Source: Caenorhabditis remanei (lineage: Eukaryota; Nematoda; Chromadorea; Rhabditida; Rhabditidae). From it: a DNA stretch of 64,000 nucleotides. The position numbers were made by a program, and so were the translations under genes. The notes beneath the pieces were generated by a model, which searched no databases, was not told where the DNA came from, and worked only from the letters and a program-made list of their open reading frames with translations. Below, piece by piece: positions 42,334 through 45,722 of the stretch (its first letter is position 1; each line of letters starts with the position of its first letter). The DNA is taken from contig NC_071332.1 in the NCBI RefSeq assembly GCF_010183535.1, forward strand, positions 9,238,001 through 9,302,000, read 5' to 3'.

Positions 42334-44562
42334 ATGTTCTCTTCGAAATCAGAAGTCGTGAAAGTTTCACCTGGATCATTTTGTATTCAAGTGCCTGAAG
42401 TGAAAGAGCCTTTGACTGATGATAAATTTCTTGGACCCCTTAGTTTTTTCATAAGGTACGTTTTGATTAGAAATGGATAGAATAATGTTTCAACATTCGA
42501 TTTTCAGATTCACTGGACTTGATTGTTCGATTGTTGCTCTTTCTAAAGTTGACTCCAGATTCAAATTCAGAGCATGGATAACCCAGATCTTTGCTGTTAT
42601 TGTTATGGCGATAATCGTCCTTCGGTGTTTTACTTTCTTTCAATTGCATGGACATTCTATGTCTTTCCAATGGGCTGAAAGTGGAATGTTCGCATTCTTG
42701 GGAGTGCAGTCCGTCGAGTGTGCATACTGTATATTCAGTTGGACAAGGAATGACTTCATGATGAATCATCTTGAGAAATTGGAAGTTCTCAGATTACTAC
42801 GTGTTAAGGATAATGAAAAAATAGACAATTACTGTAGTATCCATCTGAAAGTCCTTGTTTGGACTGGATTATGGACACTGGTTACAATGGCACACGCAGT
42901 GAATTGTGCAATAGAAGAGAAGGTTATTTTGAGTGGGTAAGTGCTAGTGTTACCGTAACTATTACTTGATGTAAACGTGTTTTTAGAGATCATATTTATC
43001 CAATCATATTCTACGGGATGCCATTTGCCACACTATTGGTCTGCTTCCATGTCTCCATTTTTCTCAATTGCTATTTTCTAGTCAACTGTTCACTATACCG
43101 AGAGATTTATTTATTTATTTTATTTATTTTGAATACGCACGCAAGGTACGTGAAAATTAAGAGTTGAGAGTTCAATATGTCCGTGTCCGTTATCCTTAAA
43201 AACGTGAACTTCCTTCATTTACTGTATTTCCTTTTCTTGTTTCTTGCTTTAAAAGAAGTTTCGAAAGTAACAAGCAAGGACCTTACACGATTGATACCAG
43301 GTGAAACACACAAGATTGGCGGCCGCATTATTACTCGAGTACAAAACACGAACTTGTACTTCAATTCCCGAAACTTTAGCCAATGTCGATCTTTTGCTTT
43401 CTTCATCTTTCTTCTATATAACTTCCTGGTTTTTCTTTGACTTCTCATCTTACGTTTCCTAGCAATTTGAAGCTCCTCTTGCACCATCTCCCATTTTTTC
43501 TTCTGTGACCTAATACGACGTTTGATCTCCTGCCTTTCTTTCCTAACAGCTCTTCTAGCAGCTCTTCTGTCGGATTCCCGTTGTTCTCTTAACTCCGCTA
43601 CCAGCTCACGGATACACCCACTTTCTTTTAAATGTTGAAAGATATCCTCCACATCCATGTTGACGATTCCTATTTATTCTCTTTTTAACTTGATTCCCTC
43701 TTGCCAACCAATCATTGATGAAAAAAATTTGGGAATGAAAAAAATTTGGGAATGAGAGAAGGTTATTTTGAGTGGGTAAGTGCTAGTGTTACCGTAACTA
43801 TTACTTGATGTAAACGTGTTTTTAGAGATCATATTTATCCAATCATATTCTACGGGATGCCATTTGCCACACTATTGGTCTGCTTCCATGTCTCCATTTT
43901 TCTCAATTGCTATTTTCTAGTCAACTGTTCACTATACCGAGAGATTGAGTATTTCAATACAGAACTGGAAAACGCTCGGAGAATGAAACAATTGAATAAT
44001 CCGGACCTTATTGCAAAATACAGTAACCGTCAAGCGGAACTTATTCATTTGGTCCGATCTGCGAACAAATCACTAGGAGGATACACTTTCACAACACCGA
44101 TTTCAATGTTCAATGCATGTATTAATGCTATTTATATTTTCTTTTCGTGAGTCTCTATCAATGTTGGAACTAAAATTCCGAACAATTACATCTTACAGCT
44201 TTCGAGAAGAACTGCCTCTGATTTCCGGCGTCATCATGACTTTGAATATTTTCGCCACTATTTTCATGACATATTTTAGTATTCGTCCGGCTAGCAATGT
44301 TCAGTTTCATATTCAAGACACTTCTCGAATTTTGATGGAAAGTCGAGAATTTGAGAATTCGAAAGATGCAGATGTGATGAACACTTACCATATTATGATT
44401 GATAGATCACTGAGACATACTGCTAGATTACGAGTACTTGGTGGAATTCCAATATATCCAACTACATTTCACATTGCAATGTTTTTCATCCCAAGTTTGG
44501 GAACTTTATTATCTTTTGTCAAGAAATCACTTCATACATATGGTTTGGAAATGCATAAATGA
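42334..44562 (+). CDS. srr-like multi-pass chemoreceptor (subfamily B) with internal duplication
   Basis: Working model: exons 42334-42455, 42508-42936, 43826-44146 and 44199-44562; 411 aa. Hallmarks: FTGLDCSIVALS after the first intron, WAESGMFAFLGVQ, REIEYFNTELENARR, NRQAELIHLV, and NTYHIMIDRSLR. Exon lengths (122, 429, 321, 364) match the gene at 45.8 kb closely. A 192-bp block covering the end of exon 2, the intron and the start of exon 3 is present twice (42916-43107 and 43755-43946) around a 647-bp insert. Splicing from the first donor (42937) to the second acceptor (43825) skips the first partial exon and the insert and restores the full protein. Use of the first acceptor (42986) would read into the insert and stop at about 43164. 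Confidence 0.7.
42916..43107 (+). repeat. 192-bp direct duplication, left copy
   Basis: Identical by direct comparison to 43755-43946. It includes the last coding bases of exon 2, its donor, the intron, the acceptor and 121 bases of exon 3. Confidence 0.9.
43108..43754. mobile_element. 647-bp insert between duplicated blocks
   Basis: Unrelated to the srr-like gene. The left edge is an A/T run that reads as aaataaataaa on the minus strand, placed after the 3' end of a minus-strand frame, so it resembles an A-rich tail. The right edge has a 17-bp tandem repeat (aaaaaaatttgggaatg, two copies). No terminal inverted repeats were found. It could be a retroposed gene copy or filler DNA captured during break repair. 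Confidence 0.55.
43215..43658 (-). CDS. Basic, coiled-coil-like 147-aa frame in the insert
   Basis: An intronless minus-strand frame from ATG 43658. The first 100 residues are highly charged (Arg/Lys/Glu, for example RRAARRAVRKERQEIKRR) and probably form a long helix; the last 45 are less charged and end KARNKKRKYSK. It has no signal peptide. I recognise no family. It fills most of the 647-bp insert, has a short TATA-like aataaata about 15-20 bases before the start, and an A-rich tract after its end. It may be a live gene, a processed copy or a chance frame; codon use and expression would decide. Confidence 0.35.
   Translation of the reverse strand: MDVEDIFQHLKESGCIRELVAELREQRESDRRAARRAVRKERQEIKRRIRSQKKKWEMVQEELQIARKRKMRSQRKTRKLYRRKMKKAKDRHWLKFRELKYKFVFCTRVIMRPPILCVSPGINRVRSLLVTFETSFKARNKKRKYSK
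43755..43946 (+). repeat. 192-bp direct duplication, right copy
   Basis: Second identical copy of 42916-43107; it runs on into the complete third exon of the srr-like gene. Confidence 0.9.
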
Positions 44563-45722
44563 TTAAAAAATTGCTTATCAGTGTCGTTTGAATTTAGGTG
44601 CGGGGTGAGACAAGAGTGTAAAAACTAAAGTTCAGGGAGAACCTACGTAAAGGTAGTTTGAAGTTTGGTAGACAGTAAGATAAAAATATAAAACAGAGGA
44701 TCGCTAAAACAGAGGATCGTTTAAAAATGTGAGACAGCTAGTGAGATCAGTCATGGTCAACGTCTCTATGCTGATATGCTGACTCACGAGAAACAAAATG
44801 ACAAACGTCATTTAACATTTACATACAAAAAACATAAAAATTGATTCAAGCCAATCAATGTTGTCAAGCGGTCACAAGTTGTTTAAAATACTTGAGTATT
44901 CAAAATATCGCGTCATCATGGTAGATAGTCTCGTAGGACCATGTTTCAGAATGGTAAGGTATCAAGATTTTCCAGTCTTAAAAAAATCCTCAGTAAACGC
45001 TGACTTCAATTTTAATATCACAGTATAAAATTTCACTAAAAAACGTAATTTGGAGGGATAACTATTTATTTATAAAACAGGAAATAGTATCATTTGGAGC
45101 GGAAAACTGGGATTAACAACCCGAATTCGCTATGTTAGCATTGGTCAAAAACTGAATTCATGTTAGTAGATAATTTGTGTCGAGAAAGTTTTTCAATGAC
45201 ATTTTCAGTTTATTAGTTACCAATATCATCATAATTAGGCGGCTAATCTTGACATATGATATCACTATATCACAATATCACAATATCACAATATCACAAT
45301 ATCATAAATCATGAAACATAAATATTGATAACTCGAAACGTCGCTTTTCTTACGTTTGGAACGATCAAAAATTAAAAATTCATCATTCGTTAAAAAAGTT
45401 AGCTTCAATATTAATCACGAGTACTTAAAACATACATGACTCATTTCTGAATTGAATTCCCTTCGGATGTATTTGCCTTTTCTGCAACCATTCCTTTCTA
45501 TTGATCCAGACAGAAATCACAGATGACTCATATTTTGCAACGATCATTTTCTCCTATTGTTTACTTAGAACTAATTGATCTTCTTTTTTTCAGAAATCAA
45601 CAAAATACTTCTTTGAACTTTCACTTTCCTCTCTCTCTCCCTTATCGCCTCCTCGAAATGAACTGAGAGTGCTAATCAAGGCTTGAGCACTCCCTCCCAT
45701 CTCCTTTCTGAATTCAAAAGTG
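44563..45722. other. Intergenic with small tandem repeats
   Basis: Two copies of a 16-mer (taaaacagaggatcgc-like) lie at about 44689-44720. An 8-bp unit, tcacaata, is repeated about five times at about 45266-45303. No gene supported. Confidence 0.55.

What the first reader, a model, noticed from the sequence alone, without database searches (positions are those of the whole stretch)
42916..43946. 192-bp exact direct duplication flanking a 647-bp insert inside a receptor gene
The end of exon 2, the intron and the first 121 bases of exon 3 occur twice, base for base, on either side of unrelated DNA. Duplications this long around an insert are not typical of transposase or LINE target sites (2-20 bp). 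They suggest repair of a widely staggered break that captured filler DNA, or a retroposed gene with unusually long flanking repeats. Zero differences imply a very recent event, or an assembly error.
Basis: partly seen in the sequence, partly recalled or inferred. Interest (0 to 1): 0.75.

Follow-up and report, generated by a model that had tools for sequence, protein, structure and literature searches.

The report
Retroposon with 192-bp target duplication
A small mobile element copied itself, probably through RNA, into a worm receptor gene and duplicated 192 bases of the gene around itself, an unusually long duplication that carries a whole intron along.

Summary
The genome is Caenorhabditis remanei PX506, chromosome V; the gene is the srr-5 orthologue (Pfam DUF267). 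The insert is not filler. It is a near-complete copy, antisense to the gene, of a dispersed family: 17-bp 5' monomers, an open frame for a basic, helical 147-aa protein, a 3' hairpin and an (AAAT)n-type tail. Many copies share the 3' end but are cut short at the 5' end, as target-primed reverse transcription leaves them. The family has no reverse transcriptase. A ~3.2-kb endonuclease-RT LINE of the same genome shares the 3' hairpin and tail and is the likely helper. The 192-bp repeat is best read as the target-site duplication of this one recent insertion. Three other copies have duplications of 95, 50 and 36 bp, but 31 of 35 scored show none. Because the duplication spans an intron, splicing from the first donor to the second acceptor would restore the 411-aa receptor; whether this happens is unknown. 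Known mechanism, unusually long duplication, and an apparently undescribed RT-less element with a conserved frame.

The parts
42916..43107 (.). first copy of the 192-bp target-site duplication
43755..43946 (.). second copy of the 192-bp target-site duplication
43108..43754 (-). inserted retroposon, read 43754 to 43108
   Evidence: family found; orientation from 3' tail and shared 3' end
43718..43755 (-). 5' tandem monomers of 17 bp, 2.2 copies
   Evidence: Tandem Repeats Finder; longer array in L003
43215..43658 (-). open frame of 147 aa with stop codon; basic, no Pfam match over its cut-off
43135..43151 (-). 3' hairpin (6-bp stem, 5-nt loop) shared with a LINE
   Evidence: sequence, fold, comparison
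43108..43130 (-). (AAAT)n-type 3' tail
42334..42455 (+). srr-5 exon 1 (predicted)
   Evidence: matches P0004 and P0005
42508..42936 (+). srr-5 exon 2 (predicted), donor 1 at 42936/42937
43826..44146 (+). srr-5 exon 3 (predicted, behind the second copy's acceptor)
44199..44562 (+). srr-5 exon 4 (predicted) with stop codon

Best explanation
A non-autonomous non-LTR retroposon of C. [quoted passage not shown] One strand was nicked at the junction with the 3' tail and primed reverse transcription; the other strand was cut 192 bases away, and fill-in turned that stagger into the 192-bp direct repeats. Shown: the exact repeat, the dispersed family, a common 3' end with shortened 5' ends in other copies, no RT in the element, and a short 3' end shared with a LINE. 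Inferred: the RNA intermediate, the identity of the helper, and the second cut at 192 nt. Because the repeat holds a complete intron, splicing from donor 1 (42936/42937) to the second acceptor (exon start 43826) would remove insert and duplicate as an 889-nt intron and restore the 411-aa protein; that this happens is not shown.
For: The insert is one of a family with near-full copies at 98-99% at five other places and a 99.8% 550-bp copy. The 3' motif occurs 45 times exactly, against 1 reversed-control hit at up to two mismatches. Several copies keep the 3' end and lose 5' sequence, down to about 50-90 bp. Tail of (AAAT)n type in three subfamilies. Adjacent repeats of 95 bp (L022), 50 bp (L035) and 36 bp (L019) flank other copies, well above 428 mismatched-pair controls; the L022 repeat is found only at its locus. 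A LINE with endonuclease and RT shares the last 46 nt at 85%, and none of 9004 control 27-mers matches the tail-less 3' end as well. Another C. remanei record encodes srr-5 intact, 411 aa, 97% identical.
Against: Long duplications are the exception: 31 of 35 copies (five of the 35 lie in one duplicated cluster), 9 of 9 third-subfamily copies in an exact-match test and 12 of 12 further loci (two sets of three are duplicates) show none, and five copies of the supposed helper LINE show none. The LINE match is short and partly low-complexity; the hairpins are only weakly stable against shuffles (z -1.7, -2.1, -0.8, -2.0). One copy, L021, keeps the 5' part and lacks the 3' end. The empty allele was seen only as a protein, which correct splicing of an occupied allele could also give.
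Confidence: 0.86

Rival explanations
1. The 192-bp tandem duplication arose first, or by break repair or template switching, and the element landed at its junction or was captured as filler.
For: Most family members lack such a long repeat, so the repeat could be independent of the element; some copies lie beside tandem paralogous genes (L023, L033, L044).
Against: The repeat borders coincide with both ends of the element, and three other copies have repeats adjacent in the same way. A captured fragment would not be expected to carry both family ends.
Confidence: 0.08
2. Assembly artefact: the duplication or the insertion was made by the assembler.
For: Zero differences between the copies; another C. 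remanei record encodes the intact protein. No reads could be checked.
Against: A misassembly would have to place a whole repeat-family member exactly between two copies of a block that has no other match in the genome. The family shows the same arrangement elsewhere.
Confidence: 0.04
3. A cut-and-paste DNA transposon or a solo LTR.
For: It is dispersed and short.
Against: No terminal inverted repeats, only one internal 10-nt pair; no fixed-length duplication; shortening at one end only in most partial copies and an A-rich tail at the other.
Confidence: 0.01

Closest known systems
SINE / LINE pairs that share a 3' end (eel UnaSINE1/UnaL2; reference seen only as a title in the reference list of PMC2881922, details recalled)
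   Same: RT-less element sharing a short 3' hairpin and tail with an endonuclease-RT LINE of the same genome; 5'-shortened copies
   Different: No tRNA gene or Rfam family match over its threshold in the element, and it has a protein-coding frame, which SINEs lack
HAL1-type non-autonomous LINEs that keep only ORF1 (recalled; search listing only)
   Same: RT-less, encodes a basic, largely helical protein, moved in trans (inferred here)
   Different: The likely helper LINE has no long ORF1 in the copies seen (a 41-codon small frame only), so the frame is not visibly derived from it
Rte-1 / RTE-clade LINEs (for the helper)
   Same: About 3.2 kb, endonuclease and RT in one long frame, a short overlapping first frame (43 aa in RTE-1 according to PMC1291365, passages read), AT-rich tetramer tail
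   Different: Clade not tested by a tree. A ~200-bp duplication at C. elegans Rte-1 is recalled and was not found in print here (one search returned no paper)
Introners (PMC9860276; listing and start of abstract only)
   Same: A mobile insertion in an exon that splicing could remove
   Different: Here both splice sites are existing ones copied within the duplication, so an existing intron would grow and no new intron position arises

Membership tests
LINE-dependent non-autonomous non-LTR retroposon | dispersed copies with common 3' end and variable 5' truncation | tested here: met
   one contrary copy, L021
LINE-dependent non-autonomous non-LTR retroposon | A-rich or microsatellite 3' tail | tested here: met
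LINE-dependent non-autonomous non-LTR retroposon | target-site duplication | tested here: inconclusive
   met at this locus (192 bp) and in 3 more of 35 copies; not seen in the rest
LINE-dependent non-autonomous non-LTR retroposon | no reverse transcriptase of its own | tested here: met
   647-bp unit with one 147-aa frame and no Pfam match over its cut-off
LINE-dependent non-autonomous non-LTR retroposon | 3' end shared with a LINE of the same genome | tested here: met
   46 nt at 85%, hairpin plus tail; short
LINE-dependent non-autonomous non-LTR retroposon | moves through RNA with the LINE's enzymes | not testable with these tools
   needs a mobility assay
SINE in the strict sense | head derived from tRNA, 7SL or 5S RNA | tested here: not met
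   no tRNA gene; no Rfam match near its gathering score
DNA transposon | terminal inverted repeats | tested here: not met
DNA transposon | short duplication of fixed length | tested here: not met
   lengths of 192, 95, 50 and 36 bp or none visible
RTE clade (helper LINE) | RT phylogeny | not tested
   only domain content and layout examined

The most novel reading that the evidence does not exclude
A split LINE: the endonuclease-RT is carried by one element that has no long ORF1, while an ORF1-like basic protein is carried by separate satellites that share only the 3' recognition hairpin, and the two help each other. In addition, target duplications that span an intron let an exonic insertion pass as intron growth and spare the gene.
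Probability: 0.2. Interest if true: 0.7.

Novelty: new variant of a known kind. Interest (0 to 1): 0.42.

Why it matters
It is a recent insertion whose duplication is about ten times the usual LINE length, in a species whose strains can be typed. It offers a natural test of what sets the second cut in TPRT, which the review PMC2881922 says is in most cases not known (passages read). The intron-spanning duplication gives a concrete test of whether a gene can survive an exonic insertion by splicing from the first donor to the second acceptor. The family itself raises the question why an RT-less element keeps a protein-coding frame across three diverged subfamilies.

Tried and rejected
L025/L003 (one locus): a 236-bp, 91% direct repeat abuts the 3' end of a 98.6% copy and looked like an even longer duplication. 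Rejected: on the 5' side the other copy ends at 442, more than 500 bp before the monomer array, and about 15 further places of the genome match this repeat.

L044 (1165 bp, 90%), L023 (1495 bp, 79%), L033 (606 bp, 81%): long direct repeats beside copies, read as tandem paralogous genes because the homology does not run up to both element ends. In L044 one border lies 2 bp from the element, which I leave unexplained.

L036 reached a flank score of 21, above most controls (99th percentile 19, maximum 22), but 311 bp away from the 5' end, so it was not counted. L031 was left out of the flank test because its 3' end is not that of the family.

Helper LINE: three LINEs with frames of about 1000 aa taken first (L050-L052) did not show the hairpin. 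The tail pattern led to the family used: at least 2 of its 58 hits (3 in the reversed control) lie 0.8 kb behind an RT listed, same strand; one search scored 150 of 620 candidates. A control on AAAT tracts was useless (six tracts, maximum score 19, so probably family copies).

Selection on the frame: mean dN over mean dS is 0.42 (40 of 78 pairs with pS above 0.06), 0.86 (33 of 55) and 0.51 (20 of 21) in the three subfamilies. Pairs are not independent. L042 and L044 were not picked up by the script; L002, L009 and L010 were read only from an internal start; L005 and L006 with extra upstream codons. So selection is indicated in two subfamilies and weak in the second.

No relative of the 147-aa protein in Pfam over its cut-off or among solved structures (two chance-level hits). 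A search of 5.8 billion proteins gave 3 hits: two named C. remanei proteins and one unnamed. Literature; I saw listings for all, and passages of PMC1291365, PMC2887409, PMC2881922 and PMC10461856. None of the listed titles names this element. Repbase and Dfam could not be searched.

Full report
What is there. The 192-bp blocks 42916-43107 and 43755-43946 are identical and flank 647 bp. The block is 21 bp of exon 2, a 50-bp intron and 121 bp of exon 3. The chromosome lengths of the genome that holds the window (C1-C6) equal those of C. remanei PX506 in Table 1 of PMC10461856 (passage read). The window is V:9,238,001-9,302,000, inside the low-recombination centre given there (6.77-13.85 Mb).

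The gene. Three exon pieces cover DUF267 positions 6-152, 154-258 and 259-360 of 360. The joined 411-aa protein is 97% identical over its full length to 'CRE-SRR-5' of another C. remanei record (recalled to be strain PB4641) and 71% to a C. briggsae protein. The PX506 annotation, GCK72_018458, has 345 aa. A model whose intron runs from 42937 to 44023 gives that protein; it removes both copies, the insert and 66 codons of exon 3. A model using donor 1 and the second acceptor (43826) gives the full 411 aa. Use of the first acceptor runs into the insert and meets a stop 19 codons later. Which splice form is used is unknown.

The insert. A whole-genome search found 55 matched stretches (candidates capped). 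Near-full copies at 98-99% lie at C4:20612723, C4:4129721, C3:2063717, C3:5071698 and C5:13406559, and a 550-bp 3' part at C1:1097858 is 99.8% identical. On the minus strand the element reads: 17-bp monomers, a short leader, a 147-aa frame, a 3' hairpin and an (AAAT)n-type tail. In L003 about 20 overlapping matches to the two-monomer unit form a long array. A second subfamily (72-75% DNA identity; L027-L037) and a third (28-33% protein identity; L038-L046) have the same general layout, with monomers visible in most. The 3' motif occurs 45 times exactly and 7 times with one or two mismatches, against 1 reversed-control hit. Several copies keep the 3' end and lose 5' sequence, down to about 50-90 bp; L021 is an exception that lacks the 3' end. 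This one-sided shortening is the mark of TPRT, in which synthesis starts at the 3' end of the RNA (established knowledge; review PMC2881922, passages read).

The duplication. Local alignment of 450 bp of 5' flank against 450 bp of 3' flank in 35 copies gave repeats close to the element ends and far above the mismatched-pair control (428 pairs, maximum 22) in 4: the window copy (score 192), L022 (73), L035 (36) and L019 (33). Their lengths are 192, 95, 50 and 36 bp at 100, 93, 92 and 97% identity. The L022 repeat occurs nowhere else at that sensitivity. Part of the L035 flank also has a match on C6. The other 31 of 35 showed none; five of the 35 lie in one duplicated cluster. Nine third-subfamily copies showed none in an exact-match test, nor did 12 more loci (two sets of three being duplicates). 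Short adjacent repeats were not above chance (250 mismatched pairs, maximum 9). So the family leaves either a long duplication or one too short, absent or eroded to see, and the 192-bp one is the longest seen. TPRT models allow duplications, blunt joins and deletions according to where the second strand is cut (PMC2881922).

The helper. The element has no RT. A tail pattern with up to two mismatches hit the genome 58 times (3 in the control). At least two of these hits lie 0.8 kb behind an RT domain listed, on the same strand. That LINE (L053-L057) has endonuclease and RT domains. Four copies are 99.0-99.4% identical to the one used as reference, so it is young. Two copies (L055, L056) share a 5' end and are ~3.17 kb long, with a 41-codon small frame overlapping the 957-aa frame; in L056 the long frame reads only 666 aa. 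Its last 46 nt match the element at 85%. A hairpin of the form ACGUAC-loop-GURCGU is common to the LINE and two subfamilies; the third has an interrupted stem. Without the tail, none of 9004 control 27-mers scores as high for any of the three subfamilies. The match is short, so the helper is likely, not proven. Five LINE copies show no long duplication, though the 5' flank held for L056 and L057 was only about 430-510 bp.

The protein. It has no match over the cut-off in Pfam and none of note among solved structures. AlphaFold2 from 4 sequences gives a long helix at residues 15-110 and two short ones (mean pLDDT 81.9, pTM 0.41). In 52 of 61 matched stretches there is no stop inside (many are partial). 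Mean dN over mean dS is 0.42, 0.86 and 0.51 in the three subfamilies, which suggests that the protein matters for spread in at least two of them. An ORF1-like role is inference.

Verdict. Its cause is most likely retroposition with an exceptionally long target-site duplication, not filler capture. The specific interest lies in the length of the duplication, in the intron it carries, and in an RT-less family with its own conserved frame.

Noticed in passing
window 42937-44023: The PX506 annotation of this gene (GCK72_018458, 345 aa) fits an intron over the whole insertion and drops 66 codons that two related proteins keep; it may be a prediction artefact or a real splice form.
   Followed up: partly
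L013-L017 (G000:C4:5863000-5901000): A cluster of inverted and direct duplications, among them a 2.64-kb inverted repeat at 99.96%, that carries five long and two short copies of the element.
   Followed up: no
L003 1086-1535: One copy has its 17-bp 5' monomers expanded to a long tandem array.
   Followed up: partly
L023, L033, L044: Copies of the family sit beside tandem paralogous genes; in L044 one repeat border is 2 bp from the element.
   Followed up: partly
L025 200-443 and 2067-2302: A dispersed repeat of about 240 bp lies on both sides of the L025 copy and imitates a target-site duplication.
   Followed up: yes
window 44689-44719 and 45259-45311: A 16-bp unit repeated 1.9 times exactly and an (ATATCACA)n array just downstream of srr-5.
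   Followed up: no
protein P0060 (GCK72_021021): An annotated F-box protein of this genome is 85% identical to 12% of the helper LINE's frame: a LINE piece inside a gene model.
   Followed up: no
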